Below are positions 50,544-64,000 of a stretch of 64,000 bases of DNA, one piece after another. Position 1 is the stretch's first letter; each line of letters starts with the position of its first letter. This stretch comes from Nocardioides conyzicola (lineage in GTDB: Bacteria; Actinomycetota; Actinomycetes; Propionibacteriales; Nocardioidaceae), in the NCBI RefSeq assembly GCF_039543825.1, contig NZ_BAABKM010000001.1, positions 124,001 to 188,000 of the forward strand, read 5' to 3'. A program made the translations under genes and the position numbers. The notes under the pieces are model-generated. The model saw nothing but the letters and a program-made list of their open reading frames with translations, was not told the origin of the DNA and did no database searches.

Positions 50544-51764
50544 GTGACAGCCGCAACCCTCATCCTCGTCCTGGTCATCGTGACCGCCCTGGCGTTCGAC
50601 TTCACCAACGGCTTCCACGACACCGGCAACGCGATGGCCACCTCGATCGCCACCGGTGCCCTGCGACCCAAGATCGCCGTCGCCCTCTCCGCCGTGCTCA
50701 ACCTCGTCGGCGCCTTCCTCTCGGTCGAGGTCGCGCTGACCGTCACGAACTCGGTGATCAAGATCCAGGACTCGTCAGGTGCTCCCAAGTCGGACCTCAC
50801 GTCCGACGGCGGGTACGCCCTCCTGCTGATCATCCTGGCCGGGCTCGTCGGCGGGATCGTGTGGAACCTCGCGACCTGGGTCATCGGCCTCCCGTCGTCC
50901 TCCTCGCACGCGCTCTTCGGCGGCCTCATCGGCAGCGCCATCGCCGCCCTCGGCATGAGCGGGGTGAACTGGAACGGCGACGGCAGCAAGCTGGACGGCG
51001 TCATCGGCAAGGTGCTCCTCCCGGCGGTCGCCTCACCGGTGATCGCCGGCGTCGTCGCCGCGGTCGGCACCTGGCTCATCTTCCGGGTGGTCGCGGGTGT
51101 CGCCGAGCGGTTCACCGAGACCGGCTTCCGCTGGGGCCAGGTCGGCAGCGCGTCCCTGGTCTCGCTCGCCCACGGCACCAACGACGCCCAGAAGACCATG
51201 GGCGTCATCACCCTCGCCCTGATCGCCGGCGGCGAGTGGAGCGACACCGGCTCGGTGCCCTTCTGGGTCAAGCTCAGCTGCGCTCTGGCGATCTCGGCCG
51301 GGACGTACGTCGGCGGGTGGCGGGTCATGCGCACCCTCGGCAAGGGCCTGGTCGAGCTGCGGTCGCCCCAGGGCATGGCGGCCGAGAGCTCGTCGGCCGC
51401 CGTCATCCTGGTCTCCAGCCACTTCGGGTTCGCGCTGTCGACCACCCAGGTCGTGACCGGGTCGATCATCGGGAGCGGCGTCGGCAAGCCCGGCGCCCAG
51501 GTCCGCTGGGCCGTCGCCGGACGGATGGTCGTCGGGTGGCTGTTCACCCTCCCGGCCGCCGGCCTCGTGGGCGCGGCGATGTGGTGGCTCGGCGACCTCC
51601 TGGGCGGGTACGCCGGCCCGATCGCGATCGTCGCCATCCTGCTCGCGACCTCCGGGTTCCTCTACTTCCGATCGACGCTCCAACCGGTGTCGGCCGACAA
51701 CGTCAACGACGAATGGACGGGTACGCCGAAGGCGGCCCGGTCCAAGGAAGGCGCGCCAGCATGA
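50544..51764 (+). CDS. PiT-family inorganic phosphate transporter
   Basis: The 406-residue transporter has the two PiT repeats: FDFTNGFHDTGNAMAT at the start and LAHGTNDAQKTMG in the middle, each with the conserved GxxDxxN/GTNDA signature, and about ten helices. It imports metal phosphate using the proton gradient. The next gene starts within its stop codon (ATGA). The order PiT, small membrane protein, DUF3349 is the same as in mycobacteria (from memory). Confidence 0.95.
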   Translation: MTAATLILVLVIVTALAFDFTNGFHDTGNAMATSIATGALRPKIAVALSAVLNLVGAFLSVEVALTVTNSVIKIQDSSGAPKSDLTSDGGYALLLIILAGLVGGIVWNLATWVIGLPSSSSHALFGGLIGSAIAALGMSGVNWNGDGSKLDGVIGKVLLPAVASPVIAGVVAAVGTWLIFRVVAGVAERFTETGFRWGQVGSASLVSLAHGTNDAQKTMGVITLALIAGGEWSDTGSVPFWVKLSCALAISAGTYVGGWRVMRTLGKGLVELRSPQGMAAESSSAAVILVSSHFGFALSTTQVVTGSIIGSGVGKPGAQVRWAVAGRMVVGWLFTLPAAGLVGAAMWWLGDLLGGYAGPIAIVAILLATSGFLYFRSTLQPVSADNVNDEWTGTPKAARSKEGAPA

Positions 51765-52067: not shown

Positions 52068-52361
52068 ATGACTTCCGACCCGTCAGGGCGCTGGCGAGGC
52101 ATCCTCGACTGGCTCCGCGAGGGCTACCCCGCCGGCGTACCGCCCAAGGACTACATCCCCCTGCTGGCGCTGCTGCGGCGACGGCTGTCCGAGGACGAGG
52201 TGCGCGCGATCGCGGGCGAGATCGCGAGCGCCGACGGTGCCGACACCGCCGACATCGCCGTCCACATCACCAAGATCACCGACGCGCTGCCCAGCCCCGA
52301 GGACATCGCCCGGGTCGAGGCCCGGCTCACCGAGCAGCACGGCTGGCCGGAGGGCGCGTAG
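52068..52361 (+). CDS. DUF3349 family protein
   Basis: The 97-residue acidic protein has the DUF3349 features: LDWLREGYPAGVPPKDYIPLLALLRRRLSEDEV and a helical C-terminal half ending in EQHGWPEGA. It is entirely soluble. Function is unknown. It follows the small membrane gene by one base and ends the PiT operon. Confidence 0.88.
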   Translation: MTSDPSGRWRGILDWLREGYPAGVPPKDYIPLLALLRRRLSEDEVRAIAGEIASADGADTADIAVHITKITDALPSPEDIARVEARLTEQHGWPEGA

Positions 52362-52368
52362 CCGCACC

Positions 52369-52386
52369 CCACCCCGCTTCGGGTGG
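52369..52386 (+). promoter_or_regulatory. Repeat element A and promoter of the DHA2 transporter
   Basis: CCACCC-N6-GGGTGG, a perfect inverted repeat. It is immediately followed by a -35-like TTGCAC and, 22 bases after the element, the -10-like TAGCGT (52409-52414). Confidence 0.7.
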
Positions 52387-52457
52387 TTGCACCGGACCAA
52401 GGCCGCCCTAGCGTGGTCACGACCGTAGGTGCGGCGCGGGTCGCGAGGTGGTGCAGC

Positions 52458-54056
52458 GTGAGCAAGCAGCGGGACGTCGACCCGGTCGAGATGTCCGCCG
52501 GCGACACGCGGCTGGCGATCCTGCTCGCGATGGCGATGTTCGTGCTGGTCGTGGACACCTCGCTGATGAACGTGTCGATCAGCGCCGTGGTCCGCGACCT
52601 GGACACGACCGTCAGCGGAGTGCAGTCGGCGATCGCCCTCGAGGCCCTGGTCTCGGCGGCGTTCATCCTGATCGGGAGCAAGGTCGGCGACCTGATCGGC
52701 CGCAGGCGCGCGTACGTCCTGGGACTCCTCGGCTACGCGACCGGGGCGGTCGCCATGACGCTGGCGCGGGACCTCACCGCGATCATCGTCTTCTGGGCCG
52801 TCATCGGCGGGCTCGGCGCCTCCCTGCTGCTGCCGGCGATGCAGTCGCTGGTGCACGGGAACTTCACAGGCGCGGCGCAGCGTCGTGCCTACGCCCTGGT
52901 GGGCGCCGCCGCCGCGATCGCCGCGGCCGTGGGGCCTCTGCTGGGAGGGTTCATCACGACGTACCTCTCCTGGCGGGTCGCGTTCGGAATGGAGGTGGTG
53001 ATCATCGCCGTCGTCCTGTCCGGGATCCGCCTGGTCCACGACGCGCCGTACACCGGTCCGCGGACCGTCGACCCGGTCGGCGCCCTGCTCTCCGTCCTGG
53101 CGATGGGCGGGCTCGTGCTCAGCATCCTCGTGTGGCAGGAGGGCGGCGAGTTCGTCCTCCTGCTGATGGCGGTCGGCGCGGTCGCCCTGGGGTCTCTGGT
53201 CATGTGGCTCCGGAGCCGCAAGCGGGCCGGCCGCCCCGCACTCGTGGACCCAGATCTGTTCGCGATCCCGACGTTCCGACTGGGCATCTCGCAGCAGATG
53301 CTGCAGCAGATCGCCCTCGGCGGCGCGATGATCGCACTCCCCATCTACCTCCAGATGGTGCTGGAGTACGACGCGATGCAGGCCGGCCTCTCGCTGGCCC
53401 CTCTGTCGCTCAGCATGTTCGCGGTCGCTGTGGTCGCGGGGCGTGCCGCCGGCGATCGCCGCGCGAGCGGGATCGTCCGGGTCGGATTCCTCCTGCTGGC
53501 GGTGGGGATGGCAGCCCTGCTGCCGATCGTGCCGCGCGCCGACTCCGGGTGGGCGCTCGTCGTACCCCTCGTCGTGGCCGGCTGCGGTCTCGGCCTGCTC
53601 GTGTCGCAGCTGAACAACTACACACTGGGACCGATCTCGGAGGAGCGCGTCAGCGAGGCCGCTGGCATCAACTCCGCCGCAGGGTCGTTCGGGCTCTCCT
53701 TCGGCCTGGCCTTCGCCGGCGCGATCATGCTGGCCGCTCTCTCCGTGACGTTCACCGCCAAGGCCGAGGGCAGCTCGGTCCTTCCGCCCGACGACCAGCA
53801 ACGGATCGCCGACACGCTCCAGGACGACGCGGAGCTGATGAGCAACACCCACCTGGAGACCCTGCTCGCCGACCAACCCCCGGACGTCCAGGACGAGGTC
53901 CTCCGGATCAACACCGAGGCGCGCCCGCTGGCCCTCCAGGTGGCGCTGACGGTGCCGATCCTGGCGGCTCTCGCCGGTCTGGTCAGCTCGTTCCGCGCGG
54001 TCCGGCTGCCCGAGCCCGAGTCGAAGGCCGCCCCGGGTGGGGCGGCCTTCGGTTGA
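52458..54056 (+). CDS. MFS transporter, DHA2 (EmrB/QacA) type, 14 TM
   Basis: The 532-residue protein has about fourteen helices. MFVLVVDTSLMNVSISAVVRDL is the DHA2 helix 1 with motif D1, and GSKVGDLIGRRRAYVLG is motif A. A soluble loop between the last two helices contains SVLPPDDQQRIADTLQDD. The GTG at 52458 places helix 1 about 20 residues in. Members export drugs or metabolites; the substrate here is unknown. It is the first unit of the proposed regulon. Confidence 0.88.
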   Translation: MSKQRDVDPVEMSAGDTRLAILLAMAMFVLVVDTSLMNVSISAVVRDLDTTVSGVQSAIALEALVSAAFILIGSKVGDLIGRRRAYVLGLLGYATGAVAMTLARDLTAIIVFWAVIGGLGASLLLPAMQSLVHGNFTGAAQRRAYALVGAAAAIAAAVGPLLGGFITTYLSWRVAFGMEVVIIAVVLSGIRLVHDAPYTGPRTVDPVGALLSVLAMGGLVLSILVWQEGGEFVLLLMAVGAVALGSLVMWLRSRKRAGRPALVDPDLFAIPTFRLGISQQMLQQIALGGAMIALPIYLQMVLEYDAMQAGLSLAPLSLSMFAVAVVAGRAAGDRRASGIVRVGFLLLAVGMAALLPIVPRADSGWALVVPLVVAGCGLGLLVSQLNNYTLGPISEERVSEAAGINSAAGSFGLSFGLAFAGAIMLAALSVTFTAKAEGSSVLPPDDQQRIADTLQDDAELMSNTHLETLLADQPPDVQDEVLRINTEARPLALQVALTVPILAALAGLVSSFRAVRLPEPESKAAPGGAAFG

Positions 54057-54085
54057 CGTCGTCGGCGGCGGACACCGCAGGACTT

Positions 54086-54103
54086 CCACCCTGGTCGGGG
54101 TGG
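54086..54103 (+). promoter_or_regulatory. Repeat element B upstream of the DUF7144 gene
   Basis: CCACCC-N6-GGGTGG, a perfect inverted repeat. The -10-like CACGCT (54126-54131) starts 22 bases after it. Confidence 0.65.
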
Positions 54104-54158
54104 GGCGCACCGGCCGGGCCGCCGCCACGCTCACGCTCACGGCACCGTGGGAGGCAAC

Positions 54159-54629
54159 ATGGGCGCTCAGGTCGGCTCCGACGTCGACGGCTCGGCACCT
54201 GGCGTGTTCGCGGCGGCCACGGCGACGTTCGCCGCGTTCCTGCTGATGATCGCGTCGCTGTTCGACATCCTCCAGGGACTGTCGGCCGTCGCCGACGACG
54301 AGTTGTTCACGCCCGGCAAGCAATACCTGTACGAGATCGACCTGACGGTGTGGGGCTGGGTCCACCTCGGGATCGGCGCCGCCGGCGTCGTCGTCGCTGT
54401 TGGGATCTTGCGGCGCACGACGTGGGCCCAGGTCGCGGGTCTTGGCGCCGCGACCATCGGGATCCTGACCAACTTCGTGTTCCTGCCGGTGTATCCCGTG
54501 TGGAGCGCGTTCATCATCGGCTTCGACGTCCTCGTCGTCTGGGCCCTGTGCGTGCAGCTCCAGCTGCCGTCCTACCCGGACCGCCGGCCCCGACCGGTCG
54601 CCGCACTGCGGACGCATCAGGAGCGGTAG
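54159..54629 (+). CDS. DUF7144-like four-helix membrane protein
   Basis: The 156-residue protein has four hydrophobic helices. After the first comes the loop ELFTPGKQYLYEIDLTVWGWVHL, and a later helix has AATIGILTNFVFLPVYPVWS. This pattern matches a family of actinobacterial membrane proteins now called DUF7144, as I recall. The ATG at 54159 has GGGAGG just upstream. The function is unknown. It has its own element-B promoter. Confidence 0.8.
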   Translation: MGAQVGSDVDGSAPGVFAAATATFAAFLLMIASLFDILQGLSAVADDELFTPGKQYLYEIDLTVWGWVHLGIGAAGVVVAVGILRRTTWAQVAGLGAATIGILTNFVFLPVYPVWSAFIIGFDVLVVWALCVQLQLPSYPDRRPRPVAALRTHQER

Positions 54630-54635
54630 CGCTAT

Positions 54636-54653
54636 CTACCCCGTCCAGGGTGG
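54636..54653 (+). promoter_or_regulatory. Repeat element C upstream of the SHOCT/DUF6325 operon
   Basis: CTACCC-N6-GGGTGG, one mismatch from symmetry. The -10-like GACGAT (54677-54682) starts 23 bases later. Confidence 0.65.
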
Positions 54654-54751
54654 TGCCCGACCACCCGAGTCCTTCCGACGATGGTGCACGAACCCAACAG
54701 CAGGCGCCGGTCGAGGACGACCACGCGCAGCAACTCGGCAGGAGGCACAGC

Positions 54752-55144
54752 GTGGTCACCGTGTGGGAGTACAGCCCGGGAGACGTCTTCCTCTCCATGC
54801 TCTGGTTCTTCTTGTTCTTCATCTGGATCTGGCTGCTGATCTCGGTCTTCGCCGACGTCTTCCGCAGCGATGACCTCTCCGGCTGGAGCAAGGCCCTGTG
54901 GACGATCTTCGTCATCGTGCTCCCGTACCTCGGGGTGTTCGTCTACCTCGTCGCCCGAGGCAAGAAGATGGGGCAGCACGCCGTTCGGGATGCGTCGATG
55001 CAGGAGCAGCAGCGACGCGACTACATCCAGAGCGTCGCCGGCACCAGCACGGCCGCGGAGATCGAGCGCCTCGCCGAGCTGCAGCGCAGCGGCACCATCT
55101 CCGATGCCGAGTTCCAACAGGCGAAGGCCAAGCTGCTCGCATGA
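54752..55144 (+). CDS. Membrane protein with PLDc_N and SHOCT domains
   Basis: The 130-residue protein has two N-terminal helices of the phospholipase-D N-terminal type (PLDc_N: WFFLFFIWIWLLISVFADVFRSDDLSGW; VLPYLGVFVYLVARGKKM). A C-terminal SHOCT motif follows (EIERLAELQRSGTISDAEFQQAKAKLL). SHOCT domains are short helical modules of unclear role, often involved in oligomerisation. The GTG has GGAGG six bases upstream. It is the first gene of a three-gene operon. Confidence 0.85.
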   Translation: MVTVWEYSPGDVFLSMLWFFLFFIWIWLLISVFADVFRSDDLSGWSKALWTIFVIVLPYLGVFVYLVARGKKMGQHAVRDASMQEQQRRDYIQSVAGTSTAAEIERLAELQRSGTISDAEFQQAKAKLLA

Positions 55145-55170
55145 CCGCCGACGACGGATGAGGTCGCGCC

Positions 55171-55668
55171 ATGGCACGGGGAGCCAGCGGCGGCGAACGT
55201 GGCCGCCCCGAACGCTTCGTCCCCGACCTGGACCTCGTCGAGTACGTCGTCATCAACCTGCCCGACCTGGGATCGTCACTGACGGTCGCCCAGGCCCTGC
55301 GGAGCCTGGTGGAGACGTCGAGGATCAGGATCCTGGACCTGGTCGGCGTGGTCACGGACGCCGAGGGGCGGTACACGGTCGCGGAGCCGGAGCTGGTCGC
55401 GGCACTGGCCGACCTGCGGAGCGTGGACGGCGAGGTCGGCGGCCTGCTCAGCGACGACGACATCGCGCTGGCGTGCCGGGCGCTGCGGGCGGGCTCCTCG
55501 GCGCTCATCCTGGTCGCAGAGGACCTCTGGGCCCAGGAGCTCGCGGACGCGGCCCGATCCGGCGGCGGACAGATCGTCGGCGGCGAGCGGATCCCGCGAC
55601 ACCGCCTCGAGCAGGCTCGCCACGCCCGACAGAGCGGCCCTGCAGGACCTGGGGGTGAGCCGACGTGA
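55171..55668 (+). CDS. DUF6325 family protein, copy 1
   Basis: The 165-residue soluble protein contains VEYVVINLPD, then RIRILDLVGVVTDAEGRYTV, then LLSDDDIALACRALRAGSSALILVAEDLWA and GGQIVGGERIPRHRL. These same blocks occur in the gene at 58963, so the two are paralogs. The family is recognised as DUF6325 by pattern; function unknown. The fold may resemble DUF1269 envelope-integrity proteins. It has an N-terminal extension of about 20 basic residues. The next gene starts in its stop codon. Confidence 0.78.
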   Translation: MARGASGGERGRPERFVPDLDLVEYVVINLPDLGSSLTVAQALRSLVETSRIRILDLVGVVTDAEGRYTVAEPELVAALADLRSVDGEVGGLLSDDDIALACRALRAGSSALILVAEDLWAQELADAARSGGGQIVGGERIPRHRLEQARHARQSGPAGPGGEPT

Positions 55669-55898
55669 GGCGCGTCCCTGGTCTGCGACACGACCACCTC
55701 GGGGTGCTCCGTACCCGGCCCCCGCTGGATCCGATGGTCGACTCGCCTGCCGACCCCCCGGCGCAGCGCACCGCGGACGTGGTCCGTCGGCTCCTCCGTC
55801 TGGTCGACGCGGGGCTGCTCTCGGAGGAGGAGTTCGAGGTCCAGGTCCTGAGGAGCTGCCGCGCCTCGGCCGCCGGCCCGGCCCCGTGGCGCAGCTAG
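55665..55898 (+). CDS. Small SHOCT-like protein
   Basis: The 77-residue protein has a basic N terminus and a C-terminal SHOCT-like helix pair (DVVRRLLRLVDAGLLSEEEFEVQ). The GTG overlaps the previous stop (GTGA). Its end overlaps the converging regulator gene by four bases. It is the third SHOCT-type protein of the cluster. Confidence 0.7.
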   Translation: MRRVPGLRHDHLGVLRTRPPLDPMVDSPADPPAQRTADVVRRLLRLVDAGLLSEEEFEVQVLRSCRASAAGPAPWRS

Positions 55899-58537
55899 AA
55901 CGTGCGCAGCAGCCCGAGACGGCGGGCCGTCGCCACGGCCTCAGCGCGCGAGTTGACGCCGAGCTTCTGGTAGATCACGCGCAGGTGGAACTTCAGCGTG
56001 TTGTGGGACACGAAGAGCTGGTCGGCGATCTCCCGCACGGTCAGCCGCGTCGGGAGCAGCCGCAGGACGTCGCGTTCGCGAGCCGTGAGCTCGTCGACCA
56101 GCGCTCCGGGCGCGGCGACCGCGAGGTCGCCTCCGACCGCGACGTGGCGCAGCCGGTTCATCCATCCGTCAGGCACCCGCCACGCGGCCAGCTCGAGCAG
56201 GTCGAGGAGGTCCCGGCCGACCGAGCCGACGGTCTCGACCATCCCGTGCTCCGCAGCGATCTCGGCCGCGGTCGCGACCTCCTTCTCGGCGCGCTCCCGC
56301 TCTCCGTCCCGGAGGGCCCGGGCGAGGACGAGGTGGCGGAGCACCTGGTGCCGCGCGCAGCGCGCGACGGCTTCCGAGACGGACTCGGCTGCCTCCGGCA
56401 GACGGTGCTGGGCGAGCAGGACCTGCGCACCGCTCAGCGCACCCCAGAACGGATCGTCGACCCGCAGCGCCCAGCGTGCGGCCGAGTCCTGGTCACGACG
56501 GGCGAGGCCGACGAGCACGCCGCGGCGCGCGACGGAGCTCGCGGCGCTGCCCGCGCTGTGCTCGCGTTCGCTGGTCTCGGTCGCCCGGGCGAACATGGTC
56601 TCCGCGAGGCCGACCTCCCCGTCCGCCAGGTGCAGCTCGACGAGCTCGAGCTGGGCCACGAGCTGCACGAAGGTGAGGGGGTACGACGCGTGCGCGGACA
56701 GGCACTCGAGCAGCTGCCGGGCCTGGTCGTGGTCGCCGAGCTCTCGCATCGCGAGGGCCTCGGCCAGGTCGAGCTCGACGCGCAGCGTGCTGAGCTCGCC
56801 CTGCTCGGCGACCTGCCGCACGGCGGCCGCCGTCCGCACCGCGTCGAGCGGATGCCCCGCGAGGGCGAGGCCCAAGGCCCGGGTGCCCTCGAGCGCGATC
56901 GAGCGCTGGGCGTCGTTGCTGACACCGTTGGCGACCGCCAGGACCGCTTCGCCGCCGTCGAGCCATCGCTCGTCGAGTGCGATCCCGTGGGCGACCAGGC
57001 TCCAGCCGTAGCGCGCGATGGGGTCGAGCCAGGCCGGGCTCTCCATCATGGACAAGGCCTCTCGGGCGAGCTCCTCGCAGCCGCGCCAGTCCCCTGACAG
57101 CAGTGCGGCGGTGGCGCGCAGCACCATCAACCGGGCCGCACCATCACCGGTCTCCGAGGGCGCCGTGCTCTCAGCGGCGGCGGACGCGGCCACGAACGAG
57201 GTCCGGTCGACCAGCAGCTGGCACCAGGCGAAGTCGACCAGCTCGTCGGGGCCTGCGGTCGCGAGGTCGGGCGTGAGCCTGCCGATCGTCTGCCGGATGG
57301 CGGCCTCCCGGCCGCTGTCGAGCAGGTCCACGGCCAGGGCGGCCAGCAGCCGCACCGCCTCGCGCGGCCGGTCTGCGGCCATCCAGTGATCGACCGCTGT
57401 CAGGCTGTCGTCGGCCGCCTCGAACCAGCGGGCGGCCAGGCCGTGCAGCTCCCGCAGCCGATCAGGCGACCTGCGTTCGAGGTCGGCGCGCAGCATGTCC
57501 CGGACCAGGCCGTGGACCTCGAACCACCCACCGGACTCGAGCCCGGTGACGAAGAGACCGCGCCCCTCCGCCTCGGCGAGGAGGTCGCCGGCGTCGGGGC
57601 GCGACGTCAGCATCTCCGCGAGCGGGTAGTTCACCCGGTCCACGACCGAGACCGACAGGAGCAGGTGGATCATCTCGGGGCGCTCGGCAGTGAGCACCTC
57701 GTGCCACAGGTACTCGTCGACCAGGCGTCCCGAGCCGGCTGCTGGTGCGTCAGACTGCTCGCCCGACTCCTTCACCGGGGATGCGCGTTGCGAGCGGACG
57801 GCCAGGGCGGCGAGCTGGAGCGCCGCGGCCCATCCACCCGCCCACTCGGTGACGTCGGGCAGCTCCTCGGAAGCAACGTCGGGACACAGGCCCGTGAGCA
57901 TCGCCGCGGCCTCGGCGTCGGAGAACCGGAGCGCGTCGAAGGTGACGTCGGCGAGGGCGCCGTCGGCGCGGAGGCGGTCCACGGGAAGCGCCAGACGGCG
58001 CCGACTCAGCAGCACCAGGTCGAGCCAGGCGGGCCGGTGCTCGACGAAGGTGGCGAGGCACCCGGCTGCCACGGTGTCGCCGTCGACGAGATGAACGTTG
58101 TCGACGACCAGGACCGTCGGCTGGGTGCCGAGGTCCTCCAGCTCCTCGACGAGGGTGTGCACCGCCTCCGCGGGATCGCGCGGACGCCGGAGCACCGACA
58201 TGGCGGCCTCGGCACTCCCCGGCACCAGCTGGTCGGCGGAGACGGCGAGCGCCATCGTCAGCTGTCGCGCCTCACGGTCGGCGTCGTCCAGCGCCAGCCA
58301 CGCCGCACGTCGACCGGTATGTCGGATCCAGTCGGCCGCGAGCATGGTCTTGCCAGCTCCGGCCGGCGCGACGAGCGCGGTGACGGGATACTCCACCAGG
58401 TCGTCGAGCAGCTGCACGAGGCGCGGTCGACGCACGAAGTGGCGTGGAGTCACGGGCACGCGGAACTTGGACCGGAAGAAGGGCGAGTCGAAGCTGCCCC
58501 TCTGCGCCTGTCCTGAACCACGTCCGCCGTCAGCCAT
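55895..58537 (-). CDS. Large LuxR-family (LAL/MalT-like) transcriptional activator
   Basis: The 880-residue protein has an N-terminal STAND ATPase domain (Walker A APAGAGKT near residue 60, Walker B TVLVVDNVHLVDGD near 145), then a long TPR-like helical region (about 370-780). A C-terminal LuxR helix-turn-helix follows (LTARERDVLRLLPTRLTVREIADQLFVSHNTLKFHLR, about 815-855). Proteins of this class (MalT, LAL) assemble on ligand and ATP binding and activate promoters from repeated upstream sites. The ATG at 58537 has AGGGG upstream. It sits in the middle of the promoters that carry the shared inverted repeat and is the obvious candidate regulator. Confidence 0.9.
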   Translation of the reverse strand: MADGGRGSGQAQRGSFDSPFFRSKFRVPVTPRHFVRRPRLVQLLDDLVEYPVTALVAPAGAGKTMLAADWIRHTGRRAAWLALDDADREARQLTMALAVSADQLVPGSAEAAMSVLRRPRDPAEAVHTLVEELEDLGTQPTVLVVDNVHLVDGDTVAAGCLATFVEHRPAWLDLVLLSRRRLALPVDRLRADGALADVTFDALRFSDAEAAAMLTGLCPDVASEELPDVTEWAGGWAAALQLAALAVRSQRASPVKESGEQSDAPAAGSGRLVDEYLWHEVLTAERPEMIHLLLSVSVVDRVNYPLAEMLTSRPDAGDLLAEAEGRGLFVTGLESGGWFEVHGLVRDMLRADLERRSPDRLRELHGLAARWFEAADDSLTAVDHWMAADRPREAVRLLAALAVDLLDSGREAAIRQTIGRLTPDLATAGPDELVDFAWCQLLVDRTSFVAASAAAESTAPSETGDGAARLMVLRATAALLSGDWRGCEELAREALSMMESPAWLDPIARYGWSLVAHGIALDERWLDGGEAVLAVANGVSNDAQRSIALEGTRALGLALAGHPLDAVRTAAAVRQVAEQGELSTLRVELDLAEALAMRELGDHDQARQLLECLSAHASYPLTFVQLVAQLELVELHLADGEVGLAETMFARATETSEREHSAGSAASSVARRGVLVGLARRDQDSAARWALRVDDPFWGALSGAQVLLAQHRLPEAAESVSEAVARCARHQVLRHLVLARALRDGERERAEKEVATAAEIAAEHGMVETVGSVGRDLLDLLELAAWRVPDGWMNRLRHVAVGGDLAVAAPGALVDELTARERDVLRLLPTRLTVREIADQLFVSHNTLKFHLRVIYQKLGVNSRAEAVATARRLGLLRTF

Positions 58538-58614
58538 GCGCGTCCCCTGCGGGTTGCCTCTCGTTCCGAGTGAGTGGGCAGCCATCCACGCTATCGCGCA
58601 ACCTGCCGCAGCCC

Positions 58615-58632
58615 CTCCCCCGATTGAGGTGA
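58615..58632 (-). promoter_or_regulatory. Repeat element F (weak) upstream of the LuxR gene
   Basis: Read on the gene strand it is TCACCT-N6-GGGGAG, with one mismatch to the consensus in each half. The -10-like TAGCGT, the same hexamer as at element A, starts 21 bases downstream (58593-58588). If real, the regulator controls its own gene. Confidence 0.4.
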
Positions 58633-58652
58633 TGTCGGGACGAGGATCCCGC

Positions 58653-58949
58653 TCAGGCTGACAGCAGCCGGGCCTTCTGCGCCTGGAACTCGGCGTCGGT
58701 GAGCACTCCCTGGTCGCGCAGCGCGCCCAGCTTCTGGAGCTGCCCTATCAGGTCGTCAGAGCTCGATGGCGCAGGCGGCGCGGGCGGCGGTGGTGCGTAC
58801 GCCGGCTGCTGGTACTGCTGCTGCTGGTACGCCTCGGCGTCCGCCTGCGCCTGCCACCGTCCCGCCTGGCGCCTCGACACGCGGTTCGAGACCGCCGTCG
58901 CCGTCCCCGCGACGACGGCCGTCCGTGCCATTCCTCCGATGAGTCCCAT
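58653..58949 (-). CDS. SHOCT protein with glutamine/proline-rich linker
   Basis: The 98-residue protein has an N-terminal hydrophobic/glycine segment (GLIGGMARTAVVAGTATAV), a QQQQYQQ and poly-proline linker, and a C-terminal SHOCT motif (DDLIGQLQKLGALRDQGVLTDAEFQAQKARLL). Many actinobacteria have this layout; function unknown. It lies 13 bases after the DUF6325 gene, in the same minus-strand operon. Confidence 0.85.
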   Translation of the reverse strand: MGLIGGMARTAVVAGTATAVSNRVSRRQAGRWQAQADAEAYQQQQYQQPAYAPPPPAPPAPSSSDDLIGQLQKLGALRDQGVLTDAEFQAQKARLLSA

Positions 58950-58962
58950 GTCCGCGCTCCTC

Positions 58963-59403
58963 TCAGGATTCCGCTGCTTCGAGCGCGTCCAACGCCGCGG
59001 CGACGTCGGCGGCAGGGATCCTGCCGCTGGCGATGACCTCCGCGCCGACGTCGCGCATCGCGCTCACGAACGGCCCGGCCCAGGTGTTCTCGTAGAGCAG
59101 CAGGCCGACCGCGTTGCCTGGCTTGACCAGCGCCGCGCTCTGCGCGACGTCATCCGGATCAAGGAGTCCCGACTGCACGCCTTCGAACACCGCGAGGTCG
59201 AGCGAGCCGTCACCGTCCAGGTCGGCGAGCGTCACCACGGCGAAGGTCCCGTCCTCCTCGACCTTGGCCACCACCAGGTCGAGGATCCGGATGATGCCCC
59301 GATCGGTGAGGTCCACGAGAGCGGCGAGGCCGTCACCCTCGAGCCTCGCGCCGGGGAACTCGACGGCCAGGTAGTCGATCGGCCCTACGTCACGGTCCGT
59401 CAT
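58963..59403 (-). CDS. DUF6325 family protein, copy 2
   Basis: The 146-residue protein contains IDYLAVEFPGARLEGDG, then GIIRILDLVVAKVEEDGTFAVV, then LLDPDDVAQSAALVKPGNAVGLLLYENTWA and GAEVIASGRIPAADV. It is a paralog of the protein at 55171. The ATG at 59403 has GAGGAG seven bases upstream. It opens the minus-strand operon and has element E in its promoter. The gap 59404-59676 to the divergent ATPase gene holds elements E and D and a short tandem repeat. Confidence 0.82.
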   Translation of the reverse strand: MTDRDVGPIDYLAVEFPGARLEGDGLAALVDLTDRGIIRILDLVVAKVEEDGTFAVVTLADLDGDGSLDLAVFEGVQSGLLDPDDVAQSAALVKPGNAVGLLLYENTWAGPFVSAMRDVGAEVIASGRIPAADVAAALDALEAAES

Positions 59404-59474
59404 CCGCCTTCTCCTCATCGCATCGGCAGTCGTCTCGAATGGTTCGAGGATTTCACCGCCCCCAAGCCCCCGCA

Positions 59475-59492
59475 CCACACCGCCGAGGGTGG
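59475..59492 (-). promoter_or_regulatory. Repeat element E upstream of the DUF6325-SHOCT operon
   Basis: On the gene strand it is CCACCC-N6-GTGTGG, one mismatch. The -10-like AATCCT starts 22 bases downstream (59452-59447). In the other direction no -10 hexamer occurs at that distance, so it belongs to the minus-strand operon. Confidence 0.6.
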
Positions 59493-59573
59493 GATCCCAC
59501 GGAGTCCTCGGGAGGTGCCCTCCGGCGGGCAGCGCCCCGACCCAGCGCGCAGCCGCTCGACCGTCTCCCCGCC

Positions 59574-59591
59574 CCACCCCACCTGGGGTGA
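59574..59591 (+). promoter_or_regulatory. Repeat element D upstream of the P-type ATPase operon
   Basis: CCACCC-N6-GGGTGA, one mismatch. The -10-like GACGAT (59615-59620) starts 23 bases later, the same hexamer and distance as at element C. Confidence 0.65.
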
Positions 59592-59635
59592 GGCGGCACC
59601 ACCCGGCGCGTGATGACGATCGACGGGACCGTGCA

Positions 59636-59663
59636 CCGCCCCGCCCCGCCCCGCCCCGCCCCG
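59636..59663. repeat. Pentanucleotide tandem repeat in the ATPase leader
   Basis: Five copies of CCGCC plus a partial sixth lie between the predicted transcription start and the ribosome-binding site (CGGAGGA) of the ATPase gene. Confidence 0.85.
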
Positions 59664-59676
59664 ACTCGGAGGACCG

Positions 59677-62412
59677 ATGACGACACAGGACGCCCGTCGT
59701 TCCGTCGTCCAGCGCCCCCAGGACCCGGTCGGCCGACCGGCCGTCGACGTCGCCGGCGACCTCGGCGTCGACCCGGCCGCCGGACTGTCCTCCGCCGAAG
59801 CCGGGTCCCGCCTCGCCTCCCACGGTCCCAACCGGCTCGCCGGCGGGAAGAAGGAGCCCGCCTGGCGGGCCTTCGTCCGTCAGTACGAGGACTTCATGCA
59901 GGTGATCCTGCTGGCCGCGGCCCTGGTCAACCAGCTCGTGACGCAGGAGACGGGTACGACGGTCGTGCTGGCCGGCCTGACCGTGTTCAACGCGGTCATC
60001 GGGCTGCGGCAGGAGGCGAAGGCAGAGGAGAGCGTCAAGGCGCTCTCGCAGATGATGAAGACGATCGCGCGGGTCCGCCGCGACGGCCAGGCCGTCGAGA
60101 TCGACGCCGAGGAGCTCGTCCCCGGCGACGTCGTCCTGGTCGAGGCGGGCAACCGGGTCCCGGCCGACGGCCGGGTGTGCGTGGCGGCGACGCTCGAGAT
60201 CGAGGAGGCAGCGCTCACGGGAGAGAGCCTCCCCGTCGGCAAGCACACCGACCCGGTGCCCGGGGAGGACGTACCCCTCGGCGATCGGCTCTGCATGGCC
60301 TACATGAACACCTCGGTCACCCGGGGCCGCGGCGAGATCATCGTGACCGCCACCGGCATGGACACGGAGATCGGCCACATCGCCGACATGCTCGCCAACA
60401 CCGGGACCAGCAAGACGCCACTGCAGCAGCAGCTCGACTCCCTCTCGAAGATCATCGCGTCGATCGCCGCGGTGGCCCTCGTCATCGTGGTCCTGCTCGG
60501 CCTCGCCCGCGGCGAGTCCTTCGACACCCTCTTCATCACCGGTGTCGCGCTCGCGGTCGCCGCGATCCCGACCGGTCTGCCGGCCGTCGTGACGGCGCTG
60601 CTCTCGATGGGCACCCGCGAGATCGCGCGACGCAACGCGATCGTCAAGCGGCTGCCGGCCGTCGAGACCCTCGGGTCGACCTCCGCCATCTGCTCCGACA
60701 AGACCGGCACCCTGACGCTCAACAAGATGACCGCGCGGGAGATCGTGATCCCCGGTCAGAACCGCTACACGGTCTCCGGCGAGGGCTACAGCACGGCTGG
60801 TGAGATCAGCCACGTCGGCGGCCAGCGCCACGACCTCGATCCCTACCTGCTGCCGATGGTGCTGTGCGCCGACGCCGTGCTCGACGGGGAGGCCCTGATC
60901 GGCGACCCGACCGAGGGCGCCCTGATCGTGCTCGGTGCGAAGGGCGGGCTCGACATCAACGAGACCAGGTCGGCACTCCCCCGGGTCGCCGAGGTCCCGT
61001 TCGACTCCGACTACAAGTTCATGGCCACCTTCCACGAGATGACCGCCGACGACGGGCGCTCGGTCGTGCGGTGCTACGTCAAGGGCGCTCCCGACGTCCT
61101 GATCGCCCGGGCGACGACGCTGCGCAAACCGGACGGCACGCTGGTCCCGCTCACCGACGACAACCGGCACCTCGCCCTGGAGGCCAACGACCAGATCGCG
61201 AACGCGGGCGAACGCGTCATGGTCGTCGCCCAGCGCGACCTGGACCCGGGTGCCGTCCGGACCGACGGCGAGCTGATCGGCCAGGTCCGGGACCTCACCC
61301 TGCTCGCCATGGTCGGCATCGTCGACCCGCCGCGGCCGGAGGCCAAGGCCGCGATCGCCGAGTGCCACGACGCCGGGATCCGGGTCCGGATGATCACCGG
61401 CGACCACGCCACCACCGCCGCCGCGATCGCCGGCGAGCTCGGCATCGAGGGACGCGCCATCACCGGCGCCGAGTTCGCCGCGATGAGCGACGACCAGCTG
61501 GTCGGCGAGCTCGACGACATCGGCGTCATCGCGCGCGTGGCGCCCGAGGACAAGGTCCGCCTCGTCCGGCTGCTCAAGGAGAAGGGCAACGTCGTCGCGA
61601 TGACCGGCGACGGCGTGAACGACGCGCCGGCCTTGAAGACCGCCGACATCGGCGTGGCGATGGGCATCACGGGGACCGAGGTCTCGAAGGAGGCCGCGGT
61701 CATGATCCTGACCGACGACAACTTCGCGACCATCGTCGGCGCCGTCTCCTACGGCCGCAGCCTGTACGACAACCTGCTCAAGTACCTGCGGTTCCAGATG
61801 TCGACGCTGGTCGCGTACATCGCGATCTTCATCGGGGCCGGCGTCATCGGCATCGCCGACGGCGCGCCGCTGAACCCGCTGCAGATCCTGTGGCTCAACA
61901 TGGTCGTCGACATCCCGCTCGCGATCGCCCTCGGCTTCGACCAACCGGCCCGCGGACTCATGGCGCGTCCTCCGCGGCCGGTCGGGGCGCCGGTCCTGTC
62001 GCGCAGCAACTGGGTCCGGCTCTGCGTCCAGGGCGCGGTCATGACCATCGGCTCCCTGGTCGCCTACCAGATCGGCGACGACCAGGGCGGCGCCGTCGTC
62101 GCCGGGACGATGCTGCTGACCACGCTGTCGCTGTTCCACCTCTTCGGGGCACTGCTCAGCCGCGACCAGACCCGCACCATCTTCGACCGCGACACGTTCC
62201 CGGGAGCCATGCAGCTCCGCCGCTACGCCGTCTCGCTGCTCGCGATCGTGGCGATCACCGCGCTGGACTTCCTCGAGCGGATCTTCGGCACCACGGGACT
62301 CAGCTTCAACCAGTGGTGCATCTGCATCGGCATCGCCGCCTCGATCGTCGTGGTCGAGGAGCTCGTCAAGCTCTTCGTCCGGCCCCACGCCGACACCCCC
62401 GCCATCGCCTAA
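59677..62412 (+). CDS. Cation-translocating P-type ATPase (P2/SERCA-like, CtpF-type)
   Basis: The 911-residue pump has the actuator motif LTGES near 185, phosphorylation site CSDKTGTLTLNK with Asp341, the KGAPD nucleotide-binding motif, MTGDGVNDAPALK near 643 and about ten helices. The N-terminal cation ATPase domain (GLSSAEAGSRLASHGPNRL) and C-terminal helices place it with Ca/Mg/Na pumps. In helix M4 the usual IPEGLP reads IPTGLP, losing a metal ligand, while M6 keeps asparagine and aspartate (LNMVVDIP). The ion is therefore uncertain. It is the first gene of an operon with argF and arcC. Confidence 0.92.
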   Translation: MTTQDARRSVVQRPQDPVGRPAVDVAGDLGVDPAAGLSSAEAGSRLASHGPNRLAGGKKEPAWRAFVRQYEDFMQVILLAAALVNQLVTQETGTTVVLAGLTVFNAVIGLRQEAKAEESVKALSQMMKTIARVRRDGQAVEIDAEELVPGDVVLVEAGNRVPADGRVCVAATLEIEEAALTGESLPVGKHTDPVPGEDVPLGDRLCMAYMNTSVTRGRGEIIVTATGMDTEIGHIADMLANTGTSKTPLQQQLDSLSKIIASIAAVALVIVVLLGLARGESFDTLFITGVALAVAAIPTGLPAVVTALLSMGTREIARRNAIVKRLPAVETLGSTSAICSDKTGTLTLNKMTAREIVIPGQNRYTVSGEGYSTAGEISHVGGQRHDLDPYLLPMVLCADAVLDGEALIGDPTEGALIVLGAKGGLDINETRSALPRVAEVPFDSDYKFMATFHEMTADDGRSVVRCYVKGAPDVLIARATTLRKPDGTLVPLTDDNRHLALEANDQIANAGERVMVVAQRDLDPGAVRTDGELIGQVRDLTLLAMVGIVDPPRPEAKAAIAECHDAGIRVRMITGDHATTAAAIAGELGIEGRAITGAEFAAMSDDQLVGELDDIGVIARVAPEDKVRLVRLLKEKGNVVAMTGDGVNDAPALKTADIGVAMGITGTEVSKEAAVMILTDDNFATIVGAVSYGRSLYDNLLKYLRFQMSTLVAYIAIFIGAGVIGIADGAPLNPLQILWLNMVVDIPLAIALGFDQPARGLMARPPRPVGAPVLSRSNWVRLCVQGAVMTIGSLVAYQIGDDQGGAVVAGTMLLTTLSLFHLFGALLSRDQTRTIFDRDTFPGAMQLRRYAVSLLAIVAITALDFLERIFGTTGLSFNQWCICIGIAASIVVVEELVKLFVRPHADTPAIA

Positions 62413-62424
62413 CAGGGAGCCACC

Positions 62425-63426
62425 ATGTCGTTCAACCTCCGTCACCGCAGCTTCCTCAAGGAGCTTGACTTCACCCCGGGCGAGCTGAAGTTCCTCCTCA
62501 AGCTGTCCGCCGACCTCAAGGCCGCGAAGTACACCGGCTACGAGCAGCCCCGCCTGGCCGGCAAGGACATCGCGATGATCTTCGAGAAGACGTCGACCCG
62601 CACCCGCACTGCCTTCGAGGTCGCCGCCAAGGACCAGGGCGCCCACGTCACGTACCTGGAGCCCAGCGGCTCCCAGATCGGTCACAAGGAGTCCATGAAG
62701 GACACGGCGCGCGTGCTCGGCCGCACGTTCGACGGCATCGAGTACCGCGGCTCCGCCCAGGAGAACGTCGAGGTCCTCGCGCAGTACGCCGGGGTGCCGG
62801 TGTGGAACGGGCTGACCGACGAGTTCCACCCGACCCAGATCCTCGCCGACGTGCTGACGATGACCGAGCACTGCGACAAGCACCTCGGCGACATCGCGTT
62901 CTGCTACCTCGGCGACGCCCGCAACAACATGGGCAACTCGCTGATGGTCGGCGGCTGCAAGTACGGCATGGACGTTCGGCTCTGTGCGCCACGCGATCTC
63001 TGGCCGAGCGACGAGCTGATCGACACCTGCCGCGAAATCGCCGAGGACACCGGGGCCAGGCTCACGCTCACCGAGGACGTCGACGAGGGCGTCGTCGGCG
63101 CGGACTTCCTCTACACCGACGTCTGGGTGTCGATGGGTGAGGAGAAGGGGGTGTGGGCCGAGCGGATCAAGCTGCTGACGCCGTACCAGGTCAACGCGGA
63201 CGTCATCGAACGCACCAAGAACCCGCGGGTCAAGTTCATGCACTGCCTGCCGGCGTTCCACAACCGCGAGACCAAGGTCGGCGAGGACATCTTCCAGGAG
63301 TTCGGGCTCGACGGGCTCGAGGTCACCGACGACGTGTTCGAGTCTCCTCACTCGATCGTGTTCGACCAGGCGGAGAACCGCCTGCACACGATCAAGGCGA
63401 TCATGGTCGCCACCCTCGGGGACTGA
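62425..63426 (+). CDS. argF: Ornithine carbamoyltransferase, probably catabolic
   Basis: The 333-residue enzyme has the carbamoyl-phosphate motif [12 protein letters not shown] (residues 54-65), the ornithine-loop VWVSMGEE and HCLPAF near 272. It resembles the catabolic ArcB-type enzymes in length and sequence ([15 protein letters not shown] start). With the following carbamate kinase it can phosphorolyse citrulline and make ATP. No arginine synthesis genes are adjacent. GGGAG is five bases before the ATG, and the gene is 12 bases after the ATPase. Confidence 0.93.
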
Positions 63427-63432
63427 CCTGCC

Positions 63433-64000
63433 GTGCGGGTCGTGGTCGCGCTCGGTGGCAACGCCCTGCTGAGGCGCGGGGAACCCATGACCGCGGAGAA
63501 CCAGCGCTCCAACGTGCGAGGTGCCGCCCCCGCCCTCGCCTCCGTGGCGAAGGCGCACCAGCTGGTGCTCTCCCACGGCAACGGCCCGCAGGTCGGCCTC
63601 CTGGCCCTCCAGGCGGCGGCGTACGAGGACGTCGACCCGTACCCGCTCGACGTCCTCGGCGCCCAGACCGAGGGGATGATCGGCTACGTCCTGGAGCAGG
63701 AGCTGGGCAACGTGATGCCCCGCGACGTGCCGCTGGCCACCATCCTCACCATGGTGCAGGTCGACCCGGCCGACCCGGCGTTCCTCGACCCGACGAAGTT
63801 CGTCGGACCCGTGTACTCACGAGCCGACGCCCACCGGCTCACCGCCGAGAAGAGCTGGGTGTTCAAGCCGGACGGCGACACCTGGCGGCGGGTGGTGCCG
63901 TCCCCGCAACCCCGGCACATCTTCGAGATCCGGCCGATCCGCTGGCTGCTCGAGCACGGCGTCGTCCTCATCTGTGCGGGCGGCGGTGGCGTGCCGACGA
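63433..64000 (+). CDS. arcC: Carbamate kinase (3' end beyond window)
   Basis: The N terminus (M)[15 protein letters not shown] and the [13 protein letters not shown] segment identify the amino-acid kinase family member that transfers phosphate from carbamoyl phosphate to ADP. The stretch [22 protein letters not shown] and ICAGGGGVP are also typical. About 189 of some 310 residues are visible. It starts seven bases after argF. Arginine deiminase (arcA) is not seen and might follow past the right edge. Confidence 0.93.

What the first reader, a model, noticed from the sequence alone, without database searches (positions are those of the whole stretch)
52369..59591. A shared 18-bp inverted repeat at fixed distance from the -10 in five promoters of one cluster
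Elements A, B, C, D and E read CCACCC-N6-GGGTGG, CCACCC-N6-GGGTGG, CTACCC-N6-GGGTGG, CCACCC-N6-GGGTGA and CCACCC-N6-GTGTGG. The N6 spacers share no sequence, yet the length is always six. Each element ends 22 or 23 bases before a xAxxxT hexamer: TAGCGT, CACGCT, GACGAT, GACGAT and AATCCT. This puts it at about -53 to -36, class II activator position. The five units are the DHA2 exporter, the DUF7144 gene, the SHOCT-DUF6325 operon, the divergent DUF6325-SHOCT operon, and the ATPase-argF-arcC operon. I know of no described regulon with this operator. It does not match the DevR/DosR box, whose half-sites face the other way.
Basis: partly seen in the sequence, partly recalled or inferred. Interest (0 to 1): 0.88.

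Follow-up and report, generated by a model that had tools for sequence, protein, structure and literature searches.

The report
New stress-regulon switch in Nocardioides relatives

Summary
CYACCC-N6-GGGTGR occurs at 12 places in the 4.96-Mb genome, 5 within 18.5 kb: four in the window, one just past it. The -10 spacings are as stated.

Two things were missed. First, a third half-site: CCACCC-N6-GGGTGR-N7-CCACCC-N10-nAnnnT. Selecting on the palindrome alone (36 sites), exact CCACCC stands 7 bases downstream in 31 orientations and at other offsets 0-29 in 3. Of 56 composite sites beside regulon-type genes, 50 have the -10 at this one offset. Two window sites have the third half-site; three lack it.

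Second, a likely regulator lies in the cluster: a MalT-like LAL (55898-58585, -). The exact composite is in 10 of 11 family genomes with its ortholog and 3 of 234 others. In another family the motif was found first; LAL orthologs (65%) then proved to lie beside it.

Best reading: this LAL activates an arginine-deiminase/Ca-ATPase regulon from half-sites at -53/-36 plus a -26 element, like PafBC/AfsR sigma adaptation. Binding, direction of control and signal are untested. The half-sites resemble BldM's (spacer 4), so this is a new variant, not a new kind.

The parts
52369..52386 (+). operator palindrome before the MFS gene; no third half-site
52409..52414 (+). putative -10 TAGCGT, 22 bases after the palindrome
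52458..54056 (+). MFS (DHA2-like) transporter gene
   Evidence: Pfam MFS_1 E 9.3e-36; TIGR00711 187 bits, under its cut-off
54086..54103 (+). operator palindrome before DUF7144; no third half-site
54126..54131 (+). putative -10 CACGCT, 22 bases after the palindrome
54147..54629 (+). DUF7144 gene
   Evidence: Pfam DUF7144 E 4.9e-38
54636..54653 (+). operator palindrome before PLDc_N-SHOCT/DUF6325
54661..54666 (+). third half-site CCACCC, 7 bases after the palindrome
54677..54682 (+). putative -10 GACGAT, 10 bases after the third half-site
54752..55144 (+). PLDc_N-SHOCT protein gene
55171..55668 (+). DUF6325-like gene
   Evidence: Pfam DUF6325 20.9 bits, under the cut-off 23.4
55665..55898 (+). 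small open frame (77 aa), no Pfam match; similar frames in relatives
55895..58585 (-). LAL (MalT-like, LuxR-type HTH) regulator, proposed regulator
   Evidence: GerE 56.5 bits; PDB MalT E 3.1e-29 over residues 39-406; co-occurrence
58653..58949 (-). SHOCT protein gene
58963..59403 (-). DUF6325 gene
   Evidence: Pfam DUF6325 E 3.2e-13
59447..59452 (-). putative -10 AATCCT, 22 bases after the palindrome
59475..59492 (-). operator palindrome (GTGTGG half) before DUF6325-SHOCT; no third half-site
   Evidence: the GTGTGG form recurs before a DUF6325 gene in L217 and L219
59574..59591 (+). operator palindrome before the ATPase-arc operon
59599..59604 (+). third half-site CCACCC
59615..59620 (+). putative -10 GACGAT, 10 bases after the third half-site
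59677..62412 (+). P-type ATPase, Ca-type by best models
   Evidence: TIGR01522 658 bits, under its cut-off 798; Pfam E1-E2_ATPase
62425..63426 (+). ornithine carbamoyltransferase gene
   Evidence: TIGR00658 above cut-off
63433..64000 (+). carbamate kinase gene (runs on past the window; arginine deiminase and antiporters follow in L020)
   Evidence: frame read and named by recall; following genes

Best explanation
The elements are operators of one regulon, controlled by the LAL (MalT-like, LuxR-type) regulator encoded in the cluster. On an unknown signal the LAL oligomerises through its NTPase domain, as MalT does, and its helix-turn-helix domains bind CCACCC half-sites: an inverted pair at about -53/-36 and, at many promoters, a third half-site at about -28/-23, between the -35 position and the -10. 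These promoters have no recognisable -35 and a weak nAnnnT -10; the bound LAL supplies the missing contact and recruits RNA polymerase, in the way called sigma adaptation for PafBC and AfsR. Output: arginine deiminase pathway, a Ca-type ATPase, an MFS exporter and small DUF7144/DUF6325/SHOCT proteins, probably for low energy or low oxygen. Shown by computation: the operator, its third half-site, its -10 offset, its co-inheritance with the LAL. Inferred: binding by the LAL, activation, the role of the third half-site, the signal.
For: Third half-site: exact CCACCC at offset 7 in 31 orientations of 36 palindromes, other offsets 0-29: 3. -10: 50 of 56 at one offset, at most 5 at any other. Co-occurrence: composite in 10 of 11 family genomes with the LAL ortholog, 3 of 234 without; 4 of 6 against 7 of 388 in the class sample; forward test G609/G611 against G610. 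At one target, the ATPase promoter: third half-site 6/6 plus -10 in 10 of 11 LAL genomes, 0 of 11 others. One recognition helix NT(L/V)KFH in all 19 LALs of the clade tested, in none of 20 other LALs. No -35: 3 of 56 reach 4 of 6 TTGACA letters, 5.5 expected. In four relatives the ATPase ATG lies 5-7 bases after the -10, in frame.
Against: No binding, expression or start-site data. Three of five window promoters lack the third half-site. Genomes and loci are related, so counts are not independent. LAL genomes G074 and G351 have no exact composite, only weaker forms. The half-site is also used with spacer 5 at the same target genes in genomes without this LAL, so target and half-site alone do not single out this regulator. 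The LAL's own gene has no site directly upstream in the window.
Confidence: 0.7

Rival explanations
1. Another LuxR/NarL-type dimer (BldM-like) binds these palindromes and the LAL is a co-inherited neighbour with a different task.
For: BldM half-sites are nearly the same (PMC4125116, passages). Genomes without this LAL use a spacer-5 version at the same genes, so some other regulator reads such half-sites.
Against: BldM's spacer 4 is not enriched (0 exact, 1 near). Composite and LAL occur together across families and in the forward test. Whether BldM is present in these genomes was not searched.
Confidence: 0.12
2. The LAL binds as a repressor: half-sites at -53 to -23 block RNA polymerase until the signal releases it.
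For: Half-sites overlap the promoter spacer; the described LAL SCO6993 acts negatively (PMC9628970, title, abstract start and passages).
Against: No -35 and weak -10 in these promoters and rigid phasing to the -10 suit activation; the model LAL, MalT, is an activator.
Confidence: 0.13
3. The conserved blocks are the promoter of an alternative sigma factor, not an operator.
For: Fixed spacing to the -10.
Against: No conserved block lies 15-19 bases upstream of the -10, where sigma would read; the third half-site lies 10 bases upstream of it. Divergent promoters share one symmetric palindrome. Three window promoters lack the third block.
Confidence: 0.04
4. Chance palindromes in GC-rich DNA, or terminator hairpins.
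For: Seven exact palindromes elsewhere in the genome look like background: none is in the composite list with up to two mismatches and the only -10 at 22/23 is inside a predicted gene.
Against: Spacer and reversed controls, conserved targets and -10.
Confidence: 0.01

Closest known systems
BldM group I operator of Streptomyces venezuelae (PMC4125116, passages)
   Same: inverted pair of (C/T)CACCC half-sites read by a LuxR/NarL-type helix-turn-helix protein
   Different: spacer 4 instead of 6; no third half-site in the passages seen; BldM is an atypical response regulator, not an LAL
MalT and its MalT boxes (PMC4381067, PMC6099782, PMC9628970, passages)
   Same: STAND/LAL domain plan; cooperative use of several DNA boxes
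   Different: MalT boxes are direct repeats of another sequence
PafBC -26 element, sigma adaptation (PMC11804915, passages)
   Same: promoter-proximal element at the same place, promoters with poor -35
   Different: WYL-domain heterodimer of another protein family; no upstream CCACCC palindrome in the passages seen
AfsR and other SARPs (PMC10936776, passages)
   Same: a regulator with NOD and TPR domains that binds within the spacer of promoters with suboptimal -10 and -35
   Different: OmpR-type domain; direct repeats 11 or 22 bp apart, the last 8 bp from the -10
LAL proteins SCO6993 and TpdR (PMC9628970, PMC6099782, passages)
   Same: actinobacterial LALs with one LuxR-type domain
   Different: SCO6993: short palindromes without a derived consensus; TpdR: proposed 15-nt direct repeat

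Membership tests
LAL regulators (large ATP-binding LuxR, MalT-like) | C-terminal LuxR-type helix-turn-helix | tested here: met
   GerE 56.5 bits, cut-off 23.5, residues 832-886
LAL regulators (large ATP-binding LuxR, MalT-like) | N-terminal NTPase (NOD) with Walker A | tested here: met
   APAGAGKT in the alignment; MalT structure 8bob E 3.1e-29 over residues 39-406; Pfam AAA_22 only under its cut-off
LAL regulators (large ATP-binding LuxR, MalT-like) | TPR-like sensor region | tested here: inconclusive
   TPR_MalT 28.7 bits, cut-off 45
MalT (equivalog) and MalT regulon | MalT model cut-off; direct-repeat MalT boxes | tested here: not met
   NF003420 249 bits, cut-off 537; sites are inverted pairs plus a third copy
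BldM group I regulon | TCACCC-N4-GGGTGA | tested here: not met
   spacer 4: 0 exact, 1 near; spacer 6: 12 and 36
DevR/DosR regulon | DevR box | not tested
Class II activation | operator adjoining or overlapping the -35 position | tested here: met
   palindrome about -53 to -36 if nAnnnT is -12 to -7; starts not mapped
Sigma adaptation (PafBC/AfsR type) | activator element near -26 in promoters without a good -35 | tested here: met
   third half-site about -28 to -23, no TTGACA excess; position only
Sigma adaptation (PafBC/AfsR type) | activator inserted between sigma region 4 and promoter DNA | not testable with these tools
   needs a structure
SARP operators | direct repeats 11 or 22 bp apart, last one 8 bp from -10 | tested here: not met
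   inverted pair; third copy 10 bp from -10 and 25 bp from the first

The most novel reading that the evidence does not exclude
A LuxR-type STAND regulator reads three half-sites, one protomer sitting on a -26 element inside the promoter spacer and so replacing the -35 contact: sigma adaptation by a LuxR-family protein, in a mobile low-energy regulon that has moved between actinobacterial families together with its operator, while related genomes run the same target genes from a spacer-5 operator and another regulator.
Probability: 0.42. Interest if true: 0.82.

Novelty: new variant of a known kind. Interest (0 to 1): 0.68.

Why it matters
LAL regulators are common in actinobacteria, and for the ones seen in the papers here an operator consensus is missing or of another form. 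This gives one LAL clade a precise operator, promoter geometry and target list that can be tested at once. It ties the arginine deiminase pathway, a Ca-type ATPase and uncharacterised families (DUF7144, DUF6325, SHOCT) to one switch, and suggests that a -26 element is used by a further type of DNA-binding domain.

Tried and rejected
Chance palindromes: rejected by spacer and reversed controls. The plain palindrome does not by itself track the LAL (214 of 245 family genomes have one); only the composite does. With two mismatches allowed, the composite count in the own genome (4 and 3) is close to its reversed control (3 and 2), so only exact or one-mismatch composites in context were used. One such site, C2:2902401 (one mismatch), has no regulon gene in its 3-kb locus L083.

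Single composite hits in genomes without the LAL: L085, L088, L089 and L193, L194, L195, L198, L199, L201 have no regulon-type gene nearby. L200 repeats the letters of L199 and was skipped by the script. L192, a hit in the LAL genome G572, has none either. Reversed-control hits: 2 in 245 family genomes, 4 in 394 class genomes.

Other readings: an alternative sigma factor does not fit the spacing. The BldM spacer is not enriched. The seven other exact palindromes of the genome add no regulon member.

Selection to keep in mind: the half-site columns are near-invariant partly by construction, because sites were chosen by that pattern with up to one mismatch; the -10 there and the third half-site were not selected for. 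In one search, 11 of 67 composites without a regulon-type gene within 260 bp were left out. Several loci were fetched because they hold the composite. Samples overlap. In the forward test the LAL was searched in 4 of the 24 genomes of that family (G572, G609, G610, G611).

Literature: ten searches; in the listings shown I saw no paper on this operator or on a Nocardioides LAL regulon. Lists were capped, and only open PMC papers are held. No structure prediction and no search of the large protein database were run.
Full report
What was checked. The five elements exist at the stated places with the stated hexamers. In the whole genome CYACCC-N6-GGGTGR has 12 distinct places; five lie within 18.5 kb, four in the window and one at C1:194891, 6.9 kb past its end. 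The fifth window element (59475, GTGTGG) is a one-mismatch match. The seven other exact places look like background: none appears in the composite search with up to two mismatches, and the only nAnnnT at 22/23 is inside a predicted gene. The genus is probably Nocardioides: two same-genus relatives, G241 and G218, coincide in contig length and place with Nocardioides sp. URHA0032 and N. insulae.

The cluster. Pfam and NCBIfam give MFS_1, DUF7144, PLDc_N-SHOCT, DUF6325 (one copy under its cut-off), an LAL regulator on the minus strand, SHOCT, DUF6325, a P-type ATPase nearest to Ca-type models, and ornithine carbamoyltransferase. Then come carbamate kinase (frame read, name by recall), arginine deiminase, NhaC/ArcD-like and YfcC-like antiporters, DUF1269 genes and a second DUF7144.

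The third half-site. Around the LAL and its family orthologs (12 loci, 36 palindromes with up to one mismatch) an exact CCACCC stands 7 bases outside the palindrome in 31 orientations, at offset 11 in 3, and at no other offset from 0 to 29; 25 of 36 palindromes have it on at least one side. Divergent promoters have one on each side. Over 56 composite sites (of 67; those with a regulon-type gene starting within 260 bp) nAnnnT stands 10 bases after the third half-site in 50, at any other offset in at most 5, and the N6, N7 and N10 stretches are close to background. In the window the third half-site is present at 54661-54666 and 59599-59604 and absent from the MFS, DUF7144 and DUF6325-SHOCT promoters. 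Of 69 oriented sites with a third half-site, 59 have the -10 at 23 and 1 at 22; of 93 without, 10 at 22 and 4 at 23. So the 22/23 difference marks two promoter sub-types. In four relatives (L061, L063, L064, L065) the ATPase ATG lies 5-7 bases after this hexamer and in frame, and so does the ATG of the gene at L020:6944 in the own genome; leaderless messages would explain this and support the -10. There is no -35: 3 of 56 sites reach 4 of 6 letters of TTGACA, 5.5 expected.

The regulator. In 245 family genomes the LAL has 11 strong relatives, own included (285 bits or more; the next match has 182). The exact composite occurs in 13 of 245, among them 10 of those 11; the other three have one hit each with no regulon gene beside it; reversed control 2 hits. 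In 394 class genomes, 6 have the LAL at E up to 1e-60 and 4 of these the composite; 7 of the other 388 have one hit each; reversed control 4 hits. Fisher tests, 2e-14 and 5e-6, treat related genomes as independent. The two LAL genomes without an exact composite, G074 and G351, have weaker forms. Two Cellulomonas genomes with a 43-44% identical LAL have composites on both sides of it, one of the four exact and three with one mismatch; 75 other loci with LuxR-type relatives (1.27 Mb) have 0 exact palindromes and 9 near ones. Forward test: in 24 genomes of another family the composite plus -10 was found in G572, G609 and G611. A later LAL search found 65% identical orthologs beside the motif in G609 and G611, with an ATPase (85-86%) downstream, and only paralogs in sister G610. 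Of ten single-hit genomes, eight had no match at 1e-30 and two only 31-36% paralogs. In 22 genomes of G422's family the composite plus -10 is in 2, both LAL genomes; a third LAL genome, G351, lacks it. The 19 LALs of this kind examined share NT(L/V)KFH in the recognition helix and form one group (100/99) against 20 other LALs. G609, G611 and G572 fall among sequences of the window's family, which suggests joint transfer of regulator and operator. A tree shows kinship, not binding.

A counter-check at one target. Of 22 family genomes with a close ATPase relative, 11 have the LAL. In 10 of these the ATPase promoter has palindrome N6, third half-site 6/6 and -10; in the eleventh, G074, the palindrome with 5/6 and no -10 at that offset. 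Of the 11 without the LAL none has a third half-site: six (G148, G211, G088, G056, G134, G011) have a spacer-5 palindrome with -10 at 22/23, two (G172, G221) a one-mismatch N6 palindrome with -10, three nothing found (for G007 the stretch examined may lie inside the gene). In 10 such neighbourhoods spacer 5 has 10 exact sites and 23 near ones, other spacers 0-2 exact and 2-14 near. So the half-site belongs to a broader group of operators; the third half-site is what goes with this LAL. This cuts both ways: it also shows that target genes pass between regulators.

Mechanism. MalT multimerises with ATP and inducer and binds its boxes cooperatively (PMC4381067, passages). If nAnnnT is -12/-7, the half-sites lie at -53/-48, -41/-36 and -28/-23. 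PafBC sets a helix-turn-helix on a -26 motif and inserts between DNA and sigma domain 4 (PMC11804915, passages). AfsR, with NOD and TPR domains, binds a box centred at -29.5 in a promoter with suboptimal -10 and poor -35 (PMC10936776, passages). The third half-site fits this by position only. Activation is inferred from the weak promoters; a role in energy or oxygen limitation is inferred from arginine deiminase and its antiporters. In G422 and G316 a composite lies directly before the carbamoyltransferase-deiminase genes. My odds: operator and regulon real 0.95; this LAL the regulator 0.85; activator 0.8; third half-site a sigma-adaptation contact 0.45.

Against what is known. The nearest operator seen is BldM group I, TCACcCgnncGgGTGA (PMC4125116, passages): same half-site, spacer 4, which is not enriched here. 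MalT boxes and the proposed TpdR site are direct repeats; SCO6993 gave no consensus. Verdict: a new variant of a known kind, a LuxR-type LAL regulon with an unusual three-half-site promoter.

Noticed in passing
G000:C1:194878-194921 (L020:6879-6922), beyond the window: One palindrome with a third half-site on both sides, between a second DUF7144 gene and a divergent 258-aa gene without Pfam match whose ATG lies 5 bases after its -10.
   Followed up: yes
L243, L244, L246, L247, L249, L251: Genomes without this LAL have YCACCC-N5-GGGTRR palindromes with a -10 at 22/23 before the ATPase and elsewhere; their regulator is unknown. L243 and L246 hold another LuxR-type protein with NTVNSE/NTANSE in the helix.
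   Followed up: partly
window 54028-54045: The two-mismatch motif match is part of a GC-rich hairpin at the end of the MFS gene, probably a terminator and not an operator.
   Followed up: no
window 59640-59664: Short run of CGCCC units in the leader between the -10 and the ATPase start.
   Followed up: no
L067:8333-10189 (G074, Aeromicrobium sp. IC_218): The LAL ortholog matches only from residue 474 on (619-aa open frame) and has a long branch in the tree; possibly truncated or decaying.
   Followed up: no
window 50544-51764 and 52068-52361: PHO4-family phosphate transporter and DUF3349 gene directly upstream of the MFS operator; no operator of their own was seen among the exact sites.
   Followed up: no
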